A DNA stretch of 64,000 bases from Eumeta japonica (lineage: Eukaryota > Arthropoda > Insecta > Lepidoptera > Psychidae). The stretch's first letter is position 1. Each line of letters starts with the position of its first letter. Both the position numbers and the translations under genes were made by a program. The DNA lies in the NCBI GenBank assembly GCA_005406025.1, contig BGZK01000190.1, positions 558,001-622,000 on the forward strand, read 5' to 3'. Positions 9,776 to 31,600 of the stretch are shown one piece after another. Under the pieces are notes generated by a model. It saw only the letters and a program-made list of their open reading frames with translations. It was not told the origin of the DNA and made no database searches.

Positions 9776-9961
9776 ATGAATCGACAAATAGACGTAAGAG
9801 CATTAGTGTCCCACATAGTATCCGGTGATGGTATGGACCGATGCAGAATTTGTATGGGTGACACAGCAGAGGGGCAGGTCTTCCTTAGCGATACTGTTAT
9901 GCTGGAAGACGACAGGCCTATAACATTGTCCGAATTGCTGGAGACGGTTACAGGCATTGAG
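9776..9961 (+). CDS. ZAD zinc-finger locus, shared first coding exon (first half of ZAD)
   Basis: Encodes 62 residues ending at a GTGAGA donor after codon GAG (phase 0). Residues 23-26 are CRIC, the first Cys pair of a zinc-finger-associated domain (ZAD), followed by the helix-forming LSELLETVTGIE. The ZAD is an arthropod N-terminal domain that binds one zinc through four Cys and mediates dimerisation of C2H2 transcription factors. The second Cys pair is absent here and appears at the start of each of three downstream exons (13005, 14720, 17646), all with phase-0 acceptors. I chose the ATG at 9776 (AAAATGA context); the frame is open to an ATG at 9683, which would add 31 residues. No other first-half ZAD was found before the second or third array, so this exon is probably shared. 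Confidence 0.85.
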
Positions 9962-10213
9962 GTGAGAAAAAAATTTATAACATGCCTTGCATTTTAAAAT
10001 GAATACTCTGCGAGGAACGGAACGGCTCGAATCGTTTCTTTCCCGCCGAACGTTAAACAAGATGGCTGCTATTATATTACAACTATAATAATTGTATATT
10101 TAATTATTTTATTAATTAGTTTGTCAAATAATCCTCTATAAATTTGAACACATCCCTAATTGATCAATAGGTTATGAGTAATTTAATTTGTTGTATTTAA
10201 AATCACACATATA

Positions 10214-12743
10214 AGGTAAAAGCACTAATGCTGGACACTTTATGGACAAATCAAACTTCATTGTCAAAAATCAAATGTACTTTTAAAAGACTGACGTATT
10301 TTTAACTAAAAATTACATTCTTCTTAGGTTTGCCGTAGATACTAAAAGATGACAGCATCAAAAATCAAATCAACCAAAAGTAGACATCACTATTATATGT
10401 TTTATCAAAACAAATCAACAAAAAATACATTAAAATGAAAACCGAGCACAGCTTGTGCTTTAAAATTAGTAATTAAGTAACAAATTATAATCAAATCAAA
10501 TAACATAAAAAAATAATTGTCAGAAAATCAATATTTAGCCATATTGTTTGTTAAAAGTGTCTCATTAGTTTTCGACATTTTAAGCACTTTAAACTAGGTA
10601 TTCAAAACTTAATCGTAATTAAGTAATGTCACACCAAATGACCCGTTAACATTTAATTGAAAATTAAATTTATACTTGCAACCTGCAACAATCATTTTTA
10701 GAGCATTGAGAACCTTTACTATTTGAGATTCACTTACAATACCAATATCCTTCTCATTTTCTTTTTAAATACAGTTTTGGTTTTATCACAGCTTACCATT
10801 GTCATAACTTCAATCTCTTTGTCTGATATTTTTTTGGACAACGCTAAGAAACTTATGAAACTTCTTTTTTCCAGGAAGGTTAATAATTACATAATCACCA
10901 GGCATGATCTTATTTTCGTTATGGTAATTTTTTTCATCCGTATATAAATCTTCATCTTCATTGTCAATCTCACGACCGTTAGTTAGATCATCTAAGCTAT
11001 CTCCAGATTGTATCCATTCCTCTTCAGTACTTGAGTCACTATAGATATCAGTCTTATTAGTTTTCTTTTTCTCAACCTTTTGACTTTTCTTAGCTACTTT
11101 CTGAACAGCCTTAACTTTTCTTTCTCCTTCGTTATTCTGTTTTTTTCTTCTTTCTTTCTTCTAATTTCTTTTTTCATTTTTTCCATTTCATTCTTTTTTC
11201 TTTCCTTATTTTCATAATATTGTAGCCATTGCGTGGACGACTCAACAGAGGGTATTTTTTCTTTCTTCCTTTTTTTAGAATTATCTTTACGTGTTGCCAT
11301 AACAAAGCTCTTTTAAAGGCACTGGGATTGATTTCACACATATTATGCGAGAGATTTTGTGGAAATTGTGACGTGAAAGGCATTATCAGGGGATCTGTAC
11401 TGATAGTCATACTGTCAGTATTATTTTCTGTTATTTTAACTGGTGTTTTAAAATTCTCAGCAAGATTGTCCAATGTAATATTGCCTTCATTTGGATCTGA
11501 ATATAAGCTGTTATTTTGAGGTATTTCATTTTGTATGATTAGGCCATCATCTTGGTTGTTTACTGTTGCATCAGTATTGTTGTCATTTATAAGTATGGGT
11601 GCTGTTTCAGAGGCACTTTCGGGTTCCAGATTATCCAACGTAATATTACCTTCATTTAGATCTAAAGATGTCGTTATAGATGCTCTGGAGGCCGTTAAAT
11701 TTTGTGGTTGCCTTGATATAATATCAGGGTGACACTTTAAAAAACTGTTGTACCATCTCTTCCCGGATCTACTGTTCTTGAAGGGGTTGTTAATCTTGAG
11801 ATCATCAACTATTCCCTTAACGCTATCTTGTAAATTATCTTTTTCTATTGGGAACCCTTTTGACCATAGCTTTTATCCATGTTATGAGTATTTTTTCTAT
11901 ATCTTCAATCACATAACAGCTTCTTTCCATTTTACGTTTAATAGGTACCTTTCCCTTAACTTTGTCAAGTAGAGTTACCTGCAGAACACCAAATTTCTTC
12001 GCCGCAGTAGCTGTCGGAACACCCTGCCTGCATTCTTTTATCACTGCTTCCATATCGGCTTCGGAGTATCTAAACATCTCTCCCTTTACTGGTGGCATTG
12101 TGCTTGAACCTTACTCTGAAATTAATGGTTACTAATAGTTGACATCTAGTATACCCTAATAGTTGACACTGTCTTATTATAGTTAGGCTAGTGTAAAACA
12201 AACGAAACTCAGACATGAACCTTATTTTTACAACATAAGGCTGAATTTGCATTAAAATAAGCTAACAAATACAGTTCGATGTAACTTTAGTAGAAGACAC
12301 ATGTGTCATCTTTTAGGTTTTGATTAATTTCTGGTACTAATAGTAAACACTACTTAAAAATTGTACAAAAACAAGCCAAAACAACAAGCTAATGGTCCTA
12401 ATAAGTCAATAAGTTCATATATTTATAATATTGAAACCAACAATAGACAATAATAATATATATATGACAAAATCATACCTATTCAAAAGTCACTTGCCTT
12501 AAAAAAAACATTAAGAATTACGCTCCTAATGTCAACCTGCTCACATTGTTTATGTCAACTAACTCCATTTTGAAATTTGCTTCTTACAATGTACGCAAGC
12601 TTTTGAGCATGTATTATGGATGACGCTAGGTGTCTTTAACATCAGGAGCAATATTATATAAATAATTAGTTTTCATAGTAGAAAAGATGTTTTTAGAAAA
12701 TGTCATCTTTTAGTTCAATGTCGAGGCATTAGTGCTTTTACCT
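10214..12743 (-). mobile_element. Pogo/Tigger-like DNA transposon in the first intron of the ZAD locus
   Basis: A 2.5 kb element bounded by inverted repeats AGGTAAAAGCACTAATG (10214 onward and, reverse-complemented, up to 12743). TA flanks each side (10212-10213, 12744-12745). Inside, on the minus strand, is a broken transposase gene with an N-terminal HTH_psq domain. The TA target site, the terminal repeats and the Psq/CENPB-type DNA-binding region point to the pogo branch of Tc1/mariner. Confidence 0.85.
10810..12098 (-). pseudogene. Degenerate pogo-like transposase (Psq HTH + CENPB-type HTH, catalytic core missing)
   Basis: It starts at an ATG at 12096-12098. The first ~45 residues form a Psq-type helix-turn-helix (YSEADMEAVIKECRQGVPTA, then AAKKFGV). 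A frameshift near 11855-11865 moves the reading to another frame, which carries a CENPB-type segment (GKRWYNSFLKCHPDIISRQP). The text then passes directly to an acidic/Asn-rich and Lys/Glu-rich C-terminal region (SAFKRALLWQ, TQWLQYYENKERKK, PGDYVIINLPGKKKF), with a further frame change near 11280 and a last stop at 10810. No DDE catalytic domain lies between, so the copy is internally deleted and cannot be active. Confidence 0.8.
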
Positions 12744-13004
12744 TAATGTATATTATACTGTAATAGAATTTAGAAAGTGGGTATAGTTGTGGATGGATTA
12801 GAGTAATCATATCATGCTATATGATGTTTAGTACATAATGATACAACCTTATTTTTGTAAATTATGAACACAAGATTGAACCGTCTTCGTAGTTTGAGGG
12901 TATGTTTTAAATATTCATAATAATAGGTATTATCATGAAAAAAATAATTGAAAAACAATGGATGTAAGAAAATTGTGGCGGTTTGACTATAGCCATGGTT
13001 ACAG

Positions 13005-14411
13005 GTGGGCGTCCAAGATTTGCTGCCAGGAGCAGTCTGCTCGGATTGTGTTGGTACAGCAATGAGAGCAGCGGAATTTCAGGACTTTTGTCGAGAATCA
13101 ATTTCAATGTGGCATAGAACCTTGAGCAACCTTCAAAATTTACCACTGGCTAGAACTTTGAGAAAAGGCACTAAAGGCATTTTTGCTATTATGCGGAATG
13201 ATAATGTCCAAATAGTAAATGATCAAACTGGCGAGCTTCAGAATGAAAAAGAGGCTGCTGTACGCCTTGAAGCACGACTTTATCAAATCAAGTATGGTGG
13301 TTATAGAAATGAATTGATACGTCAAGGAAAACGTTGCAAATGCCCTGATTGCGGGAAACAGTTCTTCTATGCCTATCATCTCTATCACCATTTGAGTCAA
13401 GGTGATGTCGACCACTGGGCATGTCCATTCTGTGCTGAAATAATGTCACGAGATATGCTTGTTGACCATTTATCTGTAGCCCATAATAGAATACCTCATC
13501 CCTGTAGAAATTGTCCAGCAATATTAAAATCGAAAGAAGGGCTTACTCATCACAACCAAAAATGCCATGCATCTGCAGGTAGGTCCTGTCATCATTGTGG
13601 TCGTGCTTTTGTATCTGAGAAAGCTTTTCAGGCTCATATTTTAATACATGGGAAGAAAAATTGCCCCGGTTGTGAGAAATATTTTGCAAATCAAAGCTGT
13701 TACATTTATCATATAAATAATTGCAAAAAATTGCCTATAGGTGTGATAAGGGAAAGAAATATAACAAAATCAGCTGAATATGCATGCTACTGTGACATAT
13801 GCAAAAAGAAATTTTCTAATAAGAAAAGTCTAACAGCCCACATGCGACATATTCATTTGAAGAATATGCTCCGTACTTGTCCTCATTGCCCAAAAACAAT
13901 GCCATCAGCATATTTGAACCAGCATCTCAAATCGCATAAAATAATAAAAGAATTCATCTGTAATCACTGTGGATTAAGCCTAAAAACCAGATTGGGACAC
14001 CTGCAGCATCTTCGATTGCATACTGGCGAGAAGCCATACCTTTGTAAAATTTGTGGTGAAGCCTTCTCCAGTTCTTCTAGGCGATCAGAGCACATGAAGA
14101 AGCACAAAGGTCCAGATGAAACATTTTTGAAGCATGCCTGTCCATATTGTCCTGCTAAATTCAGGCTTCCATATAGATTAAGAGGCCATGTCGCAGCTGT
14201 GCATAAATCGCACAAATACGAAGGGGAAATGTACCAGTGCAGTGATTGCAATGCACTTTTTATCAGTCTTAAAAGTTTATTAATACATTGCAGAAAATAC
14301 AAACATGTGACTGTACCCAATAGAATCGGTGACTCTGAATATCAACCTGTGCCATATAATAAAACATTTAATCAATCAGTGTCCAATGACAATGTGCTTG
14401 AGATTGATTAA
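13005..14411 (+). CDS. ZAD locus, alternative last exon A: second ZAD half + ~11 zinc fingers
   Basis: The acceptor TTACAG ends at 13004 and the exon continues in phase 0 from the shared exon. Joined, they give about 530 residues. It opens VGVQDLLPGAVCSDCV, supplying the second Cys pair and closing the ZAD. A linker of ~95 residues follows, then about eleven C2H2-type fingers (CPDC, CPFC, CRNC, CHHC, CPGC, CDIC, CPHC, CNHC, CKIC, CPYC, CSDC). The fifth finger ends in Cys rather than His (CPGCEKYFANQSCYIYHINNC-type), as it also does in arrays B and C. One classical HTGEKPY linker precedes finger nine. The exon ends at TAA 14409-14411. Probable role: nuclear sequence-specific DNA binding; target unknown. 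There is no in-frame ATG at the exon start, so it depends on splicing. Confidence 0.88.
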   Translation: MGVQDLLPGAVCSDCVGTAMRAAEFQDFCRESISMWHRTLSNLQNLPLARTLRKGTKGIFAIMRNDNVQIVNDQTGELQNEKEAAVRLEARLYQIKYGGYRNELIRQGKRCKCPDCGKQFFYAYHLYHHLSQGDVDHWACPFCAEIMSRDMLVDHLSVAHNRIPHPCRNCPAILKSKEGLTHHNQKCHASAGRSCHHCGRAFVSEKAFQAHILIHGKKNCPGCEKYFANQSCYIYHINNCKKLPIGVIRERNITKSAEYACYCDICKKKFSNKKSLTAHMRHIHLKNMLRTCPHCPKTMPSAYLNQHLKSHKIIKEFICNHCGLSLKTRLGHLQHLRLHTGEKPYLCKICGEAFSSSSRRSEHMKKHKGPDETFLKHACPYCPAKFRLPYRLRGHVAAVHKSHKYEGEMYQCSDCNALFISLKSLLIHCRKYKHVTVPNRIGDSEYQPVPYNKTFNQSVSNDNVLEID

Positions 14412-14475
14412 GTTCTAATGCAGTATTAAATATTTCTAAGTATACACACCTTTAAAATGTTTGATTTTAATTAAT

Positions 14476-14481
14476 AATAAA
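14476..14481 (+). promoter_or_regulatory. Poly(A) signal after exon A
   Basis: AATAAA lies 65 bp beyond the stop of exon A and before the acceptor of exon B, as expected if exon A is an alternative last exon with its own 3' end. Confidence 0.55.
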
Positions 14482-14719
14482 CTTTGATTGATTTGTTCCT
14501 AGTCAGAATTATATGTAAGTGATGCAGAACTCCGAATGGTGTCACTTCGGCATATGAGAAAAGATGTAAGGAAAGCCTTTATTAAATTGATAATACTTTT
14601 TTTGTTTATGACATTAGTTTTAATTTCCAAAAAGAGCAAGGAATATAGTCAGCTACAAGTACAGTAATTGACTAGCAAATTAACAGCAGAAGCCGCTGAC
14701 AACAGCCCATTGTTTCTAG

Positions 14720-16039
14720 GTGGAGGCTGAGGCGATGTTACCGCCGAGTGTGTGCTCCGGTTGCTCCGCTCAAGCCGTCGCTGCGGGCACTTTCGCACAG
14801 ACCTGTCGCCGTTCGGCGAGTCGTTGGACTCAAATTGTTGATCGTCTCTACAGCTTGGATGAATTAGCTCGGCCTGGAGTACAAACCATTTATGCCTTAC
14901 TCAAAGAAGAAGATTTGGTGCTACTTAGGGATTCAAAACCTGCGCCTTCAAACAAGACCACGGCTGTTCAAAGGTTAAACAAGGTCATTCCTAAATCTCG
15001 CCTGCAAAACCAACGAGATCCGACAGGTTTTGTATGCCCAGAATGCGATATGAGCTTTTCTACCATATATAGTTTAAACCGTCATCTGCGTGAAACTACT
15101 TTGCGTGCATGTGGTCATTGTAATCGAATCTTGGATAAGAGTGACTTGATGAAACATTTTAGTGAACACGGGCTAACACCACATGTATGTCTTCGCTGCA
15201 ATGATGTGTTTGATGATCGTCACCAATTGCTCAAGCACCTTCGATTAAATCATGGCCCTGGATCCCGAGCTTGTCGAGAATGCGGGCGAAAATTCAAAGA
15301 TTCTCTGGCTTTGAGTAAACATGCTGAGTGTCATGGAGTCCGAGAATGTAAAGGTTGCGGCAGGGTATTCATAGGACGTAAATGCTATGTTTACCATCGA
15401 AGTCATTGTGACAAATTAAAAGCGGCATTCATTGAATACATATGCGATGATTGTGGAAAAATTTATAGCTCCAAAATGGCACTTATTATGCACATGAAAC
15501 TAGCTCATCTGTATGGATGGCAAGTGCAATGTTCCACATGTGGGAAAAGGCTACAAAGCACGGCTCAGTTAAAAGAGCATGAGAACACTCATAACCGAGT
15601 ATACCGGTATACCTGCGAGTATTGCGGCTTGAAGATGAGTACCCGAAGGGGTTACCAGAAGCATGTTGCTGTCCACGTTGTAGGCAAGCCTCATGCATGC
15701 CCACATTGTGATTTCAGAACTAACGTTTCTTCTCTCCTAGTAAAACATTTGAAAGTACGCCATGACGAAAGTAAAGAGTATGTTTGCGAATTATGCACAG
15801 TCAGGTTTAACCAGGTGTCACATTTGAGATGTCACATGATGACGAAGCATACCGAGAGCACATTCATATGCCCCACTTGTAACAAAAACTTCCCATCGAG
15901 GAAGAAAATGCTGGATCACCAAAAGGAGCACAGCTTGGTGAGATCTCGAAGAAATGCCGTAGTCGTCAGGAAGGTGTCTATGAAACCGGTAGAAATGGAA
16001 ATAGTTCAGGAAGAAACTATCAATGCCTTTAGTGAATAA
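14720..16039 (+). CDS. ZAD locus, alternative last exon B: second ZAD half + ~11 zinc fingers
   Basis: The acceptor TTTCTAG ends at 14719; reading continues in phase 0 and opens VEAEAMLPPSVCSGCS, aligning without gaps with the openings of exons A and C. With the shared exon the product would be about 501 residues. About eleven fingers follow a linker of ~85 residues (CPEC, CGHC, CLRC, CREC, CKGC, CDDC, CSTC, CEYC, CPHC, CELC, CPTC), and the fifth again ends in Cys (SCYVYHRSHC-like). The linker between fingers eight and nine is VVGKPHA rather than the TGEKP type seen in A and C, so B is the most diverged of the three. The C-terminal tail after the last finger is basic, then acidic. No ZAD first half was found between exons A and B. 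Confidence 0.88.
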   Translation: MEAEAMLPPSVCSGCSAQAVAAGTFAQTCRRSASRWTQIVDRLYSLDELARPGVQTIYALLKEEDLVLLRDSKPAPSNKTTAVQRLNKVIPKSRLQNQRDPTGFVCPECDMSFSTIYSLNRHLRETTLRACGHCNRILDKSDLMKHFSEHGLTPHVCLRCNDVFDDRHQLLKHLRLNHGPGSRACRECGRKFKDSLALSKHAECHGVRECKGCGRVFIGRKCYVYHRSHCDKLKAAFIEYICDDCGKIYSSKMALIMHMKLAHLYGWQVQCSTCGKRLQSTAQLKEHENTHNRVYRYTCEYCGLKMSTRRGYQKHVAVHVVGKPHACPHCDFRTNVSSLLVKHLKVRHDESKEYVCELCTVRFNQVSHLRCHMMTKHTESTFICPTCNKNFPSRKKMLDHQKEHSLVRSRRNAVVVRKVSMKPVEMEIVQEETINAFSE

Positions 16040-16208
16040 ATCTTTTTTGTGACGTACATAGATTAGTTAAGAAGATACAATACAAAGACTCCTCTCTATT
16101 CTGCTTTCAAAACAATATAAATCTTACTTTAACTATATCAATGTAACTTTCCAATTTTCATTTCTATAATATATCTTTGTTTTATTAGTAGTTATATGTA
16201 ACCGAAGC

Positions 16209-16214
16209 AATAAA
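16209..16214 (+). promoter_or_regulatory. Poly(A) signal after exon B
   Basis: AATAAA lies 170 bp beyond the stop of exon B. A second AATAAA (16035-16040) overlaps the stop codon and is too early to be the main signal. Confidence 0.5.
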
Positions 16215-17265
16215 AGATTACAAATGAAAATTACTTTATCCGATTACTTGATTTTTTCTTTTCATAGCTAAATTTTATACTGAAGGAATTCAATAAAATG
16301 AGCTATTATGAGTAGCTTTTTTCACTAATTTTAGGAACATCAGAAATTAACATAATTTATTATTATTTAAAACAATCATAGGGCATATTTTTTTTAATTT
16401 GCACACCATCTTACCCAATTTCCTCTTTATATGGATTGAAATGTTCAACAATGACTACAATTAGATCACATTATAATCAATTGCTATTTTTCAATATTAA
16501 TTGCAGTGTAATTATTAGAGGTGAAGTATTTTTGAATAGAACAAAGGTGATAGAAAAGAAAAAAGTGATAAAGATTTTATTATTTATATAGTAAATAATT
16601 ACACGTACTGTCGTGTAGAAGACCTTTTTTTTGGTTATCTAACTTCATAAAATTAAGTAAAGTTGTAAAGTTTTTCGAGGTATTTTTTAACGCTTCCTGG
16701 TAAAATGTTTCAATTGTCGAGATTCTAAAAGCTGGTAATAGCTTACAGCTATATTCGGTGATTACAGAAGATAACAAATTGAAACTGCAAAAATTGGACA
16801 ATATGAGGTTCACCATTATCGTGACATAATAGTACTGAAGATTAGTGATAAGGAGCTATTTTTTTTTTTTGATTTTGCCATCATTTTTCCCACTTCTCTG
16901 TGTATATACTTTTTACCAATATATTATGGGTTTTGACATCTACATGGGCGCAGCTACCCTACTGCTAATTTTCACCTAATATTGGAAAATTGCATGTTAT
17001 CTCACACAACAATTCCAGTTCATAAATTTTGATTTCTGACTGAATCCAACAATATAAACTTTGAGCCACTTTTCATTCTGCAGATCAGTTAACTTGAAAA
17101 TAACCTTTTTCCTGTTTTTAATTTTACCGATTTACTGGAAATAGGTTACTGTTGCAGGTATGCTTATATCAAATTTTAATCATATTGCTGCCTTTTGCAA
17201 CCATTTTTAAATAAAAGTACTTAATGTTTCACTCTCAAATCTTACAAGTAATATTTGAAGTCTTA
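16215..17265. other. Spacer between exons B and C
   Basis: About 1 kb of AT-rich sequence. I looked for a ZAD first half (a C-x2-C pair before a donor) that would make array C an independent gene and found none. Confidence 0.4.
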
Positions 17266-17425
17266 GGGTCGTATTAATAAACATCACTCAAGTGATGCGC
17301 CATCTCAAGAAGTAACCTGGGAGTGAAACAAATATTGTTTTCTATAGTGAACTACTATAACTGTCTTGTTCTTTCGACTCTCAATTTGGAATGCCGCATT
17401 TAAGTGTGCTTTATTAATATGACCC
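17266..17425. mobile_element. Harbinger-type MITE
   Basis: A 160 bp element with ends GGGTCGTATTAATAAACA and TTTATTAATATGACCC (inverted) and a TTA on each side (17263-17265, 17426-17428). A 3-bp TTA/TWA target duplication is the mark of PIF/Harbinger elements. It lies about 220 bp before the acceptor of exon C. Confidence 0.75.
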
Positions 17426-17645
17426 TTAGTAGCCAATAGATCATAAAGCAGATCAGTACAATTGAATTTATTATAATAGTAATGAAATAAATATAATTTT
17501 TTTTTTCATATAGCTAGCACCAAGAATCCATATATGATAAAGAAGAAATGAGTGGTCTCTTCTCAAATAGATTACAAATCTTCTATGTACATATAGTTTA
17601 AACAAAATTGGAAAAACAGGTATTGACTGTATGCGACATTTTCAG

Positions 17646-18897
17646 ATGAGAATGGAGCGATTGTGCCCCGAAGGGGTTTGCGTCACGTGCGTCACTGCCG
17701 CCATATCTGCTCAGCAATTTAAGTGCTTAATACAAGAGTCACATAAACAATGGAGCAAGGCACTTTCCAATTTAGAGCAAATACCGAATAATGTGCCCAG
17801 CCCTTCTAAAGCTCTGTGCGCTTTTATCAGAGGAATAGATGTCAGTGTGCATATTTTTAAGGATTATCGAAACAAAAATGCAAATTTTACTGTTGAAGAT
17901 GTGAAATCAAGGATCATCGAAGATCTCGATGTAGGTAGGATTAAAAGGAAATTAAAAACGATACGTTCATCGGTTCCAAATGTCAGGAGTGACTGTCCAG
18001 ATTGTGGCAAGCACTTCTCAAGCCCATACTATTTAAATATACATTTGAGGAATAGTGGGCAGAAGGAAGCTTGTCTCGTATGTGGCTTAGTCTTTTTCCG
18101 TGGTAAAGAAATTAAAGAACATTTGGCATCTGAACACAATGAAATCGTTTATTCCTGCAAAGATTGCCCACAATTTTTTTCCATGGAATCAGATCTGAAA
18201 AGACATCAAAAGGAAGCCCATAATCCTAACGTTTTCAGTTGCTCCGACTGCGGTCGAGTATTTCCAAGAAAGTCATCTTTCGAAGTACATTCTCAAATGC
18301 ACGCCGTCAGAACCTGCAGAAGTTGCGGTTCTCAATTCACGAACAGGAGCTGTTACCGTCAACATCGTTCTGTATGCGAGCCCGATGCGAAGCCTCCCAG
18401 ATTTATAGTACCAAAAAAGAAACGTTCAAATTTAAGAGATCTGGCGGTTTACACCTGCGACTACTGTAGTAAGACTTATACATCGAGGCCACAATTGAAA
18501 AACCATATAATCTGGATCCATATGGACGTTAGGCCGCACCAATGTCAGTGGTGTGGTAAAAGATTTTACACGTCTGCAAGGTTGGCAGAGCATACAGTAG
18601 TACACACGCGAGAGAGAAACTTCGGTTGTGACATCTGTGGAGCTAGATTGGTTTCCAAGATGGCTGCTATTTATCACAGAAGGAGGCACACAGGTGAGAA
18701 GCCATATGAGTGTGCCGATTGCGGGGAGAAATTTATATCGTCTTCTAGAAGAACAGAACATGCGAAAAAGAAGGCATGGCTATGGAAAAAGGTTTCCTTG
18801 TAACTTATGTTCAGCGACATTTGTTAGAACCCATGAATTGAGAAAGCATGTCGAAAAAACACATTGTATGAAATTCAAAAACGAAGAAAAGTCATGA
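17646..18897 (+). CDS. ZAD locus, alternative last exon C: second ZAD half + 10 zinc fingers, frameshifted near its end
   Basis: The acceptor CATTTTCAG ends at 17645, phase 0, and the exon opens MRMERLCPEGVCVTCV, matching the spacing of exons A and B. The body is a linker and then fingers (CPDC, CLVC, CKDC, CSDC, CRSC, CDYC, CQWC, CDIC, CADC), with the fifth ending in Cys and a HTGEKPY linker before finger nine. In the ninth finger, at an A5 run (18765-18769), the frame breaks. The open frame ends at TAA 18801-18803, while the adjacent frame continues with a tenth finger (CNLCSATFVRTHELRKH) to TGA 18895-18897. One surplus base in that A run would explain both. This is either an assembly error or a truncating allele. 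The exon is closest in sequence to exon A (SSSRRSEH against SSSRRTEH). Confidence 0.85.
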
Positions 18898-23594: not shown

Positions 23595-24466
23595 TTGGAC
23601 TCCGCTACCGGATTTAATGATATACCCAGCTTGTTTATTGAACAGTTAAAGAATATCTGGACGCCTATTATCACATATTTATGTAATCTTGGTTTGATCA
23701 GGGTATCTTTCCACAGATTTTTAAAACTGTTATTATTAAACCAATCTATAAGGATGGGAACCGAGACTGTACTAATAATAATAGGCCTATTTTTATTTTG
23801 TCGGCATTATCAAAGATCTTTAAAAAGCTAATGAATAAGCGACTGATGTCATTCTTAAAATCCAACAATTGTCTAGCTGGTGAACACTTTAGTTTTAGAG
23901 TTGTTATATCAACTGATGATGGTGAACTGGAACTGAAACATCATTGTGGCGAGTCTAGACTTAAACAAAAAAAAATTATTAGAAGACTGGATGATGCTGG
24001 AGTCGGGGGCTTATTTCTTAAGCTATTGAGAAGTAGGCCTGACTATCTAACAAATCGTTCTCAACGAGTGAGTATCGGAGATTAGTTAAGTGATGAACTG
24101 CCGGTGACTTATGGTGTTCCTCGAGGTAGTATTCTTGGCCCTACACTATTTTTCGTCTATATTAGCGAGTTGTATCAGTTAAAGCTCAACCATGGCAGAA
24201 TATTGTCCATCGCAGATGACACTGCATTGGTATTCACCAGCAACACGTGGGAAGAAACATGCCCATTCCCAGGTTGGTATTCAACAAGATCACTTATTAT
24301 TAATTTAAGTCGAGAGAATATTTGCTCCATAATTTTTTACAATTATCGCTGTGACTTAAGTCAGCAAAAAAGTTGCCAGATACTTCGATTAGGAAATGAA
24401 GCTCAATCTCGTAGCTTTGTGTATTCCTGGTTCAGTGCATTCAGCCATGCAAGCGATGACAAATAA
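23595..24466 (+). pseudogene. Broken non-LTR retrotransposon reverse transcriptase (Jockey-like)
   Basis: Pieces of a reverse transcriptase appear in order across three frames: SALSKIFKKLMNKRLMSFLK, then DYLTNRSQRVSIGD, then TYGVPRGSILGPTLFFVYIS and SIADDTALVF. The last is the catalytic block, with the Asp pair kept and the usual Tyr/Phe replaced by Ala before it as in Jockey/CR1-type FADD/YADD variants. At least two frame breaks and a stop near 24085 make it inactive. Upstream endonuclease sequence was not found. Confidence 0.8.
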
Positions 24467-28688: not shown

Positions 28689-31600
28689 ATGTCTTTCAAA
28701 AGGGATTTAAAGCAATTGTTAAAACCGTATTACTGGGTGAATATATTATTGAGCACCTGCTATGTATTTTGCAAACGCACACCTATAATATGTAGCATGC
28801 TCTTCCCTAGCTCTGATTGCGAATTGGACAGTAGGGAAACCGAAATTTTGTTCTTCCTGATAATAGTCGTTATGCTCAGGACAAGGAAAGCCGGTAGCGT
28901 GACCATGGTCAATTATTTGTCATCGTCCTTCGTCTACACCAAGATAGCCAACTTGGTGTTGTGGTTGTACGCAGATATTAGGTAAGTCTGTACTGGGTGT
29001 CCATCTCATTGATTTATATTACCAAAATGAATATAGATTTTGACAGGGACTGCCCGAGGTATTGTAATTGAACTTTTTTTTGAAACGGCAAAATCTAGCA
29101 CAATAATGTTCACCTTCTTCTGAATGCTTTATTTGGAAACCTTTGCTAAAATAAAAACTAGAGGTGCGGTCAGAGAAGGCCTGTGAGAAACTAAGTTTTT
29201 TTTTTTATAAATAAATAATTCAAAGTAATGAACGAAATCAAAGAGTTTCATTTAGTATTTTAAGACAAATGGATACAACATAATTAATCATAAATTATAT
29301 ATAAAAAAAAAATTAAGTAATAAATTTCAAGCAAGAGAGAGAAAGTCACATGGAAGGGGCATAAGGCTTCTTTAATATGGTTGCCACCAGTCAACTCATA
29401 CCACAAGCCGTGTTAAGAAACTTTGTTACAATATATACATAATGAGAATATAAAAGAATACATTTACAATTATAAATCATTTGTATCAGTTAGGCACATA
29501 TATTACTAGTTGTGGTTTTGTAATTCTTAGTAAAAAATTGTGACTAAACTGCATATATTTTTACATTAAAAATGTAATAAATCAAAATTAGTGATATCAC
29601 TGCATTGTGCACTTGGATTTATTTTTTTGCATTGCATCTTTATGCATCATATTTTAGTACATATTAGGAAAGTACAACCCAATGATTTTCCCGCCATCTG
29701 TTATGATTAAATTAAATTTGCCTTTTTTTATGACTTAATGACATTTTATTTTTCTTAAACTGAAGGAATACTTCTGACCTGCTTATTATTTTTTTCAACG
29801 AATTCAATCAATTTTACTCGTTAATTTGAGCCCGAGTGATAACTTGTTTCATTGATGTATAGAAGAAACCATTCTTATAGTAAAGTCATGTTGTACCTCT
29901 TAAAGGCAGGAACACTTCAATTACATAATCATACTTGTCTGTGATTAGTGCTTTGAAATCAATGAGCAATTCTGGTTAGAAATTTGTATGTAAGTTGATC
30001 TGTAAATTTTCTAGTAAATAGTTGCATACTTCGACAAATTTATTAACATGAACATTCGTAGTTGCAATATGAATATAAATATGGCATACGCTAACACCCA
30101 TTAATCAAAATAGTAGGAAGAGACCACAAATTATTCACATATTTTGAAAAGATTAAACAAAATTTATGTGACTGATTAAAATATTAAATGCATTTTTATG
30201 TTTTCAGATTGGGTCTAATTTATGGAGTGTTATTTGTACTCTTTGCTTTGATATTACCCGAGCCTACTTACACTGGACCCGAACACGTCACCTATTTTCG
30301 TGGTCTCCAGACTTTAGACGAGGAATTGAAAAAAAGGAGACAGGACACGTGGGTGATGTGTTTATATGCCGCCTGGCACCCGGCTTGTGTCAACTTTGCT
30401 CCAATTTTTGCGGAATTGTCTGCTCATTACCATTTAGAAAATTTGAAGTTTGGAAAACTTGATGTTGGAAGGTTGGTACTGGTTGTCATTCTTAAATTAA
30501 CAATTTATTTAAACATCGTAATTTTGGAAATACATTATTATATAAAATATTTTGAATATCACATATTACACAAATGTCATATATTTTATTTTAATTCTTG
30601 TACTTAGTAAATTCACTATTTTAAGTTATATAGTAAAGTTTAGCAGGTTTCAGAAATATGTAACAAAATTTTCAGGTACCCCGATGCAGCGACCCGATTC
30701 AGGGTTCAAGATGGGCCAACGAGCAGACAGTTGCCCACGCTGATACTGCTTAAAGATGGAGAAGAGAAGGTAAGAAGACCGGATGCGGACCACAACGGGA
30801 AATTGAAAAGGTAAGACCTTCCATATAATTTGAGCGAGTTTTAAGAAGTCAGTGTGTTGTTGGTCAGCAGCCGATGAATGAGTTTTATTTGTTGATAAAA
30901 TTAAATTACAAAAATAAATTCAATATTATAAAATTAGAACAGTAAGTACTACATAGTATTGTAAGAGAAATAAAATAAAAATTGCATCCTTGCACTTAAT
31001 GTTGTATAATAAAATTTTCCTATATTTATTTGACACTTTTTGATATAACTTTTTCTGTAAAACAATGCACAAACATGACATCGCACGACATGAATCGTTC
31101 AAGTCGTTCAATGATTTCACAATTACTAACACAGGATTTTTGTATATTAAGATTTATTTTCTTAATTTTCAATTAATAATTCATAGATTATAAAAACTAG
31201 TTATTACACACTTTTTTTTTTTACTGTATATACGTTCACAATTCACAAACATATCCTTCAGGTCATCCTCATTAGTATGCTTAAATCCATACTTATTCAC
31301 GTGTCCATATTCTTGTTCACCAAGTCTCGCTATTCGTGCACAGACAATAAGATCCTTTTCAACTTTTTGGACATTATTTTCAACACGAGTCACATGCAGA
31401 CCACCTATCTCTAGAACATCTATGAAAGCAAGAGAGAAGAGTTGTCATCATTGTGTCGGTGGACACTAGGTGTTAGGTGCTAGGTGACATAAACTAAAAA
31501 CTAGAATACTGGTATGATGTACATTTTGTGTGTTTGAATAATTTAAATTTTTGCATATTTCAATTTAATCACATAATGCAATATTGTGATGTATTGAACG

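What the first reader, a model, noticed from the sequence alone, without database searches (positions are those of the whole stretch)
9776..18897. One ZAD half-exon feeding three alternative last exons, each with its own ZAD half and finger array
Seen: a 62-codon exon holds the first Cys pair of a ZAD and ends in phase 0. Three tandem exons, each behind an acceptor, open with gap-free equivalents (VGVQDLLPGAVCSDC, VEAEAMLPPSVCSGC, MRMERLCPEGVCVTC) in phase 0, and each continues into a full finger array. No second copy of the first half was found. Known: ZADs dimerise, and lola and mod(mdg4) use one shared BTB exon with many alternative zinc-finger ends. Inferred: here the dimerisation domain itself is cut, so isoform choice would swap half of the dimer interface together with the DNA-binding array, which could make partner choice isoform-specific. 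I know of no described locus with this arrangement, but I could not search.
Basis: partly seen in the sequence, partly recalled or inferred. Interest (0 to 1): 0.88.

Follow-up and report, generated by a model that had tools for sequence, protein, structure and literature searches.

The report
Split dimerisation domain with swappable halves
In moths and butterflies, one gene appears to splice a single shared half of a protein-pairing domain onto one of several alternative exons, each bringing its own second half and its own DNA-reading zinc fingers, so that one gene would make several different transcription factors.

Summary
A 62-codon exon (E1, 9776-9961, phase 0) holds the first Cys pair of a ZAD. 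Three downstream exons (A 13005, B 14720, C 17646) each open in phase 0 with the second Cys pair and run on into a C2H2 array. E1 joined to the first 48 codons of A, B or C scores 41.2, 36.7 and 40.3 bits for Pfam zf-AD (cut-off 28); E1 alone 12.2; five decoy joins at most 21.6. The window has one E1 and three second halves.

The locus is from a bagworm (Eumeta). Databases hold 26 other proteins with this E1, from 15 named lepidopteran species and one unnamed source. In all 12 within-species comparisons (8 species) E1 is identical (62/62) and proteins part at codon 63 or 64; 19 of the 26 are labelled isoforms X1-X4. Four exon types form clades; this window has A, B and C. DNA-contact residues are kept within types A, C and D and differ between types.

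So a shared half-ZAD with alternative last exons is real and conserved as gene structure. Isoform-specific dimer partners are plausible but untested. Ten paper searches showed no description. Exon C has a one-base frame break.

The parts
9776..9961 (+). E1: shared first coding exon, 62 codons, first ZAD Cys pair (CRIC), ends in phase 0 with donor GTGAGA at 9962
   Evidence: 62/62 identical between proteins of one species in 8 other species; the only E1 found in the window
9962..13004 (+). first intron up to exon A; holds a degenerate DNA transposon (about 10212-12745)
13005..14411 (+). exon A: ZAD second half plus C2H2 array, stop at 14409-14411, AATAAA at 14476
   Evidence: groups with 9 type-A orthologues at 100/99
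14720..16039 (+). exon B: ZAD second half plus C2H2 array, AATAAA at 16209
   Evidence: split from the other 31 rows together with 5 type-B orthologues at 100/99 (unrooted)
17646..18803 (+). exon C: ZAD second half plus C2H2 array; in-frame stop at 18803 after a one-base frame break near 18760-18775
   Evidence: inside the type-C clade of 14 rows at 100/100
18766..18897 (+). last finger and tail of array C, in another frame than the rest of exon C
   Evidence: tblastn frame 1, 69.7% identity to P0034 over 33 residues

Best explanation
This is one ZAD-C2H2 transcription-factor gene of Lepidoptera with a constant/variable layout. The E1 donor is spliced in cis to one of several tandem terminal exons, each ending in its own stop and 3' end. 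E1 supplies the first zinc-binding Cys pair and the short helix of the ZAD; the chosen exon supplies the second Cys pair, the long stem helix and a whole finger array. Each isoform is therefore a complete ZAD protein with its own DNA specificity and its own half of the dimer surface. Shown here: anatomy, one E1 in the window, domain completion, conservation of the join and of four exon types across Lepidoptera at the protein level. Inferred: cis splicing, terminal-exon choice linked to 3' end formation, expression in this species. Inferred and less certain (about 0.4): the swapped half gives isoforms different dimer preferences.
For: Joined domains pass zf-AD, halves and five decoy joins fail. 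One E1 and three second halves in 64 kb. The gap from stop A (14411) to acceptor B (14720) is 308 bases and holds no E1-like half. 26 E1 proteins from 15 named species plus one unnamed source: 12 of 12 within-species pairs identical over 62/62 residues, first mismatch at codon 63 or 64. 19 of the 26 are labelled isoform X1-X4 by their source; in each of the 8 species with two or more types the labelled ones have the same longest-contig length, e.g. Ostrinia X2 (D), X3 (A), X4 (B), 331,870 bases. P0013 (source tag lgn) encodes E1+C without interruption on a contig of only 1,709 bases, which looks like a spliced transcript. Seven of 17 type-C proteins without E1 read intron-like residues ending in Q directly before the conserved junction, as expected of genomic ORFs with an in-phase AG acceptor. 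Four clades of second exons. The profile of the joined domain finds four PDB sequences at E<=0.1 (E 0.0024-0.018): 1pzw (named Grauzone) and 7pok, 7po9, 6fp5, which I recognise as ZADs from recall.
Against: No RNA from Eumeta was seen. The X labels are gene models whose read support I could not inspect. Manduca type A (P0012) is an unlabelled protein on a contig of another length than types B and D, though its E1 is identical. 17 of 19 type-C hits lack E1; I read these as unspliced genomic ORFs, and none has zf-AD in the precomputed column. Exon C has a frame break and no AATAAA/ATTAAA until 19985. The deposited Eumeta model (P0001) fuses E1, part of A, and B. AlphaFold confidence in the E1 half is low (block means about 36-65). 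The ZAD second half is not strongly type-conserved. D was not found in the window. A decoy join can reach 21.6 bits, so a weak ZAD score alone would mean little.
Confidence: 0.85

Rival explanations
1. Lola-like mixing (a rival to the functional half only): the shared half and the common fold let all isoforms dimerise with each other, so splicing changes only the DNA-binding array and gives combinatorial heterodimers.
For: Lola isoforms with a shared BTB heterodimerise in yeast two-hybrid (PMC5127561, passages). Finger contact residues of A, C and D are far more type-specific than the ZAD second half. In 25 aligned orthologues of all four types the second Cys pair and a Pro before it are invariant and a Trp in the helix nearly so.
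Against: Pita, Zw5 and ZIPIC ZADs are reported to form only homodimers (PMC7983404, passages). Between-type identity of the second half is about 0.29.
Confidence: 0.4
2. B and C are separate genes that have, or had, their own promoters and first ZAD halves; E1 belongs to A only.
For: Exon C starts with an in-frame ATG, and its frame is open upstream to 17571. Tandem clusters of whole ZAD-C2H2 genes are described in flies (PMC9810180, sections 8 and 9). 17 of 19 type-C hits lack E1.
Against: No second E1 in 64 kb; 308 bases between A and B; E1+B, E1+C and E1+D proteins in other species with E1 identical to that of their sister isoform.
Confidence: 0.05
3. One long protein: E1, A and B are parts of a single reading frame, as in the deposited Eumeta model P0001.
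For: P0001 is the deposited 842-aa model.
Against: A has its own stop and an AATAAA 65 bases later. The model drops a stretch of A that 9 of 9 type-A orthologues keep. In the other species E1 joins straight to B, C or D.
Confidence: 0.03
4. In this species only A (perhaps B) works; C is decaying and the layout is a relic.
For: One-base frame break in C; no D exon found in the window; B on a long branch.
Against: Over the rest of C contact residues match other species at 0.70, and the last finger still reads at 69.7% identity in the shifted frame, so the break is recent or an assembly error in an A run.
Confidence: 0.12
5. The exons are joined in trans between separate pre-mRNAs, as reported for lola and mod(mdg4), rather than in cis.
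For: Precedent recalled for lola and mod(mdg4); a lola trans-splicing paper is in the reference list of PMC5127561.
Against: All exons lie on one strand within about 9 kb, so cis splicing suffices; nothing here points to trans.
Confidence: 0.06

Closest known systems
lola and mod(mdg4) (Drosophila BTB loci)
   Same: Common N-terminal region with a dimerisation domain, many alternative C-terminal ends with different zinc fingers (lola: PMC5127561, passages; mod(mdg4) recalled).
   Different: There the BTB is complete in the common part; here the ZAD is cut and the second half travels with each finger array.
Dscam (arthropod)
   Same: Alternative exons encode half of a binding domain (N-terminal half of Ig2 and of Ig3); parts of Ig2 and Ig3 form the epitope for homophilic specificity (PMC6851185, passages).
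   Different: Internal mutually exclusive exons in a surface receptor; here terminal exons in a DNA-binding protein, with the finger array in the same exon.
cucoid of culicine mosquitoes
   Same: ZAD-C2H2 gene with alternative 3' ends used in development (PMC6783274, passages; PMC9810180, passages and section 8).
   Different: The shorter isoforms described lack the last finger(s) of one array; I saw no swap of the ZAD. PMC9810180 reports a single-copy cucoid orthologue in Bombyx; whether the present gene is related to it was not tested.
Kipferl (CG2678, Drosophila)
   Same: ZAD-C2H2 gene whose two annotated isoforms carry one or two finger arrays; ZAD dimerises (PMC9531945, passages).
   Different: The passages describe one ZAD and differing numbers of arrays, not alternative ZAD halves.
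Drosophila ZAD-C2H2 clusters (M1BP, Odj and others)
   Same: Tandem duplication of ZAD-C2H2 units (PMC9810180, section 9).
   Different: Whole genes were duplicated there; here only the second exon.
KRAB zinc-finger genes
   Same: N-terminal domain split over exons, fingers mostly in one exon, alternative splicing of the domain part (PMC5509000, passages).
   Different: That passage describes KRAB A alone or A plus B in front of one array, not a choice among arrays.

Membership tests
ZAD-C2H2 proteins (PF07776) | zf-AD profile match over the gathering score | tested here: met
   36.3, 31.8 and 35.7 bits against 28 for E1+A, E1+B, E1+C; decoy joins at most 21.6
ZAD-C2H2 proteins (PF07776) | two Cys pairs about 50 residues apart | tested here: met
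   C23/C26 and C74/C77 invariant in the 25 orthologues aligned (25 of 26; P0019 was left out of that alignment) and in the three window joins
ZAD-C2H2 proteins (PF07776) | C2H2 array C-terminal to the ZAD | tested here: met
   zf-C2H2 matches in A, B and C; 9, 9 and 7 motif matches (one in A overlaps another; C read up to 18764)
ZAD-C2H2 proteins (PF07776) | ZAD dimerises | not testable with these tools
   needs an assay; only monomer folds were predicted
lola/mod(mdg4)-type loci | one constant 5' part and several alternative terminal exons with different finger arrays | tested here: met
   anatomy and shared E1 among proteins of 8 species
lola/mod(mdg4)-type loci | constant part holds a complete dimerisation domain | tested here: not met
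   E1 holds half a ZAD: 12.2 bits alone, below cut-off
lola/mod(mdg4)-type loci | isoform mRNAs observed | tested here: inconclusive
   gene-model isoforms in other species and one 1,709-base contig; no RNA from this species
Dscam-type half-domain exons | mutually exclusive internal exons | tested here: not met
   A, B and C each end in a stop codon

The most novel reading that the evidence does not exclude
Splicing at this locus exchanges half of a dimer interface together with the DNA-binding array, so that a single gene makes three or four mutually private homodimers (A:A, B:B, C:C and, where present, D:D), each tying together only its own class of genomic sites: a set of orthogonal architectural factors from one promoter, kept since early ditrysian Lepidoptera.
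Probability: 0.35. Interest if true: 0.82.

Novelty: new variant of a known kind. Interest (0 to 1): 0.64.

Why it matters
The constant/variable transcription-factor loci I know keep the dimerisation domain whole. Here the domain itself is completed by the alternative exon, which makes it a natural domain-swap experiment: one constant half paired with up to four variable halves in many species. It allows a direct test of which part of a ZAD sets partner choice, and of how several DNA specificities evolve under one first exon. It also suggests that a set of differently named lepidopteran models (zinc finger protein 836, 260-like, 471-like, 85-like, 39 and so on) are isoforms of one orthologous gene.

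Tried and rejected
Own-genome search for other ZAD halves: the genome search did not complete, so uniqueness of E1 is known for the window only. Foldseek on the type-C model returned C2H2 arrays (CTCF, ZFP568 and others) in the 50 rows shown of 289 matches, no ZAD among them; its ZAD half is of low confidence, so I drew nothing from it and ran no VIA search. A single-sequence search of solved structures with E1+A gave at E<=1 two of the chains later found with the profile (6fp5, 7pok) and a cytochrome. A first BLAST classification failed through a bad command and was redone. The structural paper on ZAD homodimer specificity (Bonchuk 2021) and Zolotarev 2016 are not held; what I say of ZAD dimers comes from passages of PMC5509000, PMC7983404, PMC9531945 and PMC11229372. 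PMC7655104 and PMC9917889 were opened for passages and gave nothing on this layout. Considered and rejected: chance CxxC pairs (decoy joins fail); a fused A-B protein; separate genes. Whether the split is older than Lepidoptera was not tested: all three protein searches used lepidopteran queries. The hits with a named organism are all Lepidoptera (orders recalled); the lgn hits name none.
Full report
What is there. E1 (9776-9961) begins at the first ATG of its open frame and ends in phase 0 before GTGAGA. Exons A (13005-14411), B (14720-16039) and C (17646-18803) follow on the same strand, each behind an AG and each in phase 0. E1 carries CRIC; A, B and C have CSDC, CSGC and CVTC at codons 12-15 of the exon. 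Only the joins are ZADs by Pfam: 36.3, 31.8, 35.7 bits in full length (cut-off 28; E1 read into its intron 15.8), 41.2, 36.7, 40.3 with the first 48 codons, against 12.2 for E1 alone and 13.5, 20.0, no match, 21.6 and 16.2 for five decoy joins. A, B and C alone give no zf-AD match at E<=0.01. A profile of 13 joined domains (3 from the window, 10 from database proteins) finds four PDB sequences at E<=0.1: 7pok, 7po9, 6fp5 and 1pzw (Grauzone); I recognise the first three as ZADs from recall.

One E1, three second halves. tblastn at E<=0.1 with the first 62 residues of 44 proteins (27 of them true E1) hits 9776-9961 with the 27; the remaining hits come from the 17 queries that are not E1 and fall on A, B and C, plus two weak ones at 37.9-38.0 and 51.9-52.0 kb. 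43 second halves hit only A, B and C. From stop A to acceptor B there are 308 bases, with no E1-like sequence.

Whose locus. A database protein from a deposited Eumeta genome (P0001) matches E1 at 62 of 62 residues and holds B to its end. Eumeta is a bagworm moth (Psychidae, Tineoidea, Ditrysia). P0001 is a model that fuses E1, a shortened A, and B; the type-A proteins of nine other species keep the stretch that it drops, so I take it as a prediction error.

Other Lepidoptera. Search with E1 of the window gave 15 proteins of 28 candidates at E<=0.001; with E1 of P0008, 23 of 43; with residues 63-330 of E1+C, 19 of 303 at E<=1e-25. Each stands for a cluster at 90% identity. Leaving out P0001, 26 proteins carry E1, from 15 named species and one unnamed source. 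They fall into A (9), B (5), C (5) and D (7). Eight of the 15 named species show two or three types: Manduca ABD, Ostrinia ABD, Papilio AD, Amyelois AD, Anticarsia BD, Achroia AB, Plodia CD, Cydia fagiglandana BC. In all 12 within-species pairs E1 is identical (62 of 62) and the first mismatch is codon 63 or 64, where the window has its splice junction; behind it identity over residues 63-110 drops to 0.21-0.35. Source names of the 26 isoform X1 to X4, and in each of the eight species the labelled ones have the same longest-contig length; Manduca type A (P0012) is unlabelled and on a contig of another length. I cannot see the RNA behind those models. P0013 is E1+C without a break on a contig of 1,709 bases, which I read as a transcript; its source tag (lgn) names no organism.

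Against. Seventeen of the 19 hits lack E1. They look like ORFs called on unspliced DNA: 7 of the 17 (P0028, P0029, P0032, P0034, P0040, P0041, P0042) read intron-like residues and then Q directly before the conserved junction, and the rest start at or inside the exon. None has zf-AD in the precomputed column.

Tree. 37 second exons (A 10, B 6, C 14, D 7, the three of the window included). Nine of the 17 E1-less type-C proteins were not used: P0027, which is the window's own, and P0030, P0033, P0035, P0036, P0038, P0039, P0043, P0044. A with W_A 100/99; C with W_C 100/100; D 100/100; W_B and the five B rows are split from the other 31 rows at 100/99 (unrooted). P0019 (B) is a long branch. So A, B and C probably arose before Eumeta parted from the other families sampled; D groups with C (98/92), so it was probably lost in Eumeta or lies outside the window.

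Constraint. E1 is 0.79 identical between species (mean, 17 sources, Eumeta and the unnamed one included). ZAD second halves are 0.42 (A), 0.30 (B), 0.46 (C), 0.40 (D) within type and 0.29 between types (C there only from proteins with E1 and the window). Residues of the finger helices that contact DNA (positions -1, 2, 3, 6, a recalled rule) are 0.66, 0.35, 0.71 and 0.66 identical within A, B, C, D and 0.27, 0.16, 0.25, 0.33 between types; in A, C and D they are more conserved than the finger scaffold (0.58, 0.67, 0.55), in B not (0.35 against 0.39). Eumeta against its type: A 0.56, B 0.30, C 0.70 (rows A 10, B 6, C 16, D 7; seven partial or redundant type-C proteins left out). So A, C and D have kept distinct DNA-contact sets; B drifts fast. 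The case for type-specific dimer surfaces is weaker than the case for type-specific DNA binding.

Where the cut lies. Models of P0012 (A) and P0018 (C) place a short helix at 51-59, the exon junction at 62/63 in the following loop, and a long helix from 75 to 106 or 111 (block pLDDT about 36-65 in the E1 half and 66-90 in the helix). This fits the described ZAD: an N-terminal globule around zinc, a long stem helix, an antiparallel dimer (PMC5509000, passages). Deleting its ZAD cost Kipferl its ChIP signal genome-wide (PMC9531945, passages), and Pita, Zw5 and ZIPIC ZADs are said to form only homodimers (PMC7983404, passages). By that analogy each splice choice would build a working dimeriser; whether isoforms mix is open.

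Frame break in C. The exon's frame ends at 18803, and the last finger goes on in another frame from 18766 to 18897. Of 21 other type-C proteins 20 keep this finger in frame; P0044 stops before it. Assembly error or real loss cannot be told here.

Known or new. Ten paper searches (of these 7, 10, 35, 57 and 67 were aimed at this question) in an open-licence library showed no description of a ZAD or other transcription-factor dimerisation domain cut in this way. I saw the listings, and passages or sections of ten papers; many journals are not held. Lola shares the layout with a whole BTB; Dscam shares half-domain exons; cucoid and Kipferl share isoforms with differing finger sets of a ZAD gene. 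The combination is what appears new, hence a new variant of a known kind.

Noticed in passing
window 10212-12745: Intron 1 holds a degenerate DNA transposon with perfect 20-nt terminal inverted repeats and minus-strand ORF pieces; the 232-aa piece has no Pfam match at E<=0.01, and the other piece looks pogo/pipsqueak-like by eye only.
   Followed up: partly
window 18760-18775: One-base frame break near a run of A in exon C; the last finger continues in another frame.
   Followed up: partly
window 23687-24466 +: Two adjoining open frames that look reverse-transcriptase-like; the second has RVT_1 at 16.1 bits, below the cut-off of 29.6, the first no Pfam match at E<=0.01. Probably a retrotransposon remnant.
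   Followed up: no
window 30188-30604 +: Open frame with a weak thioredoxin match (21.8 bits, cut-off 23.5); looks like the first exon of a TMX-type gene (name recalled).
   Followed up: no
P0004 (Tuta absoluta): The cluster bears two gene names on two contigs (g752, g10901), so E1+C may be duplicated in Tuta or split by haplotype.
   Followed up: no
P0005, P0010, P0019, P0020, P0023 and exon B: Type B changes much faster than A, C and D, in the ZAD half and in the DNA-contact residues alike.
   Followed up: partly
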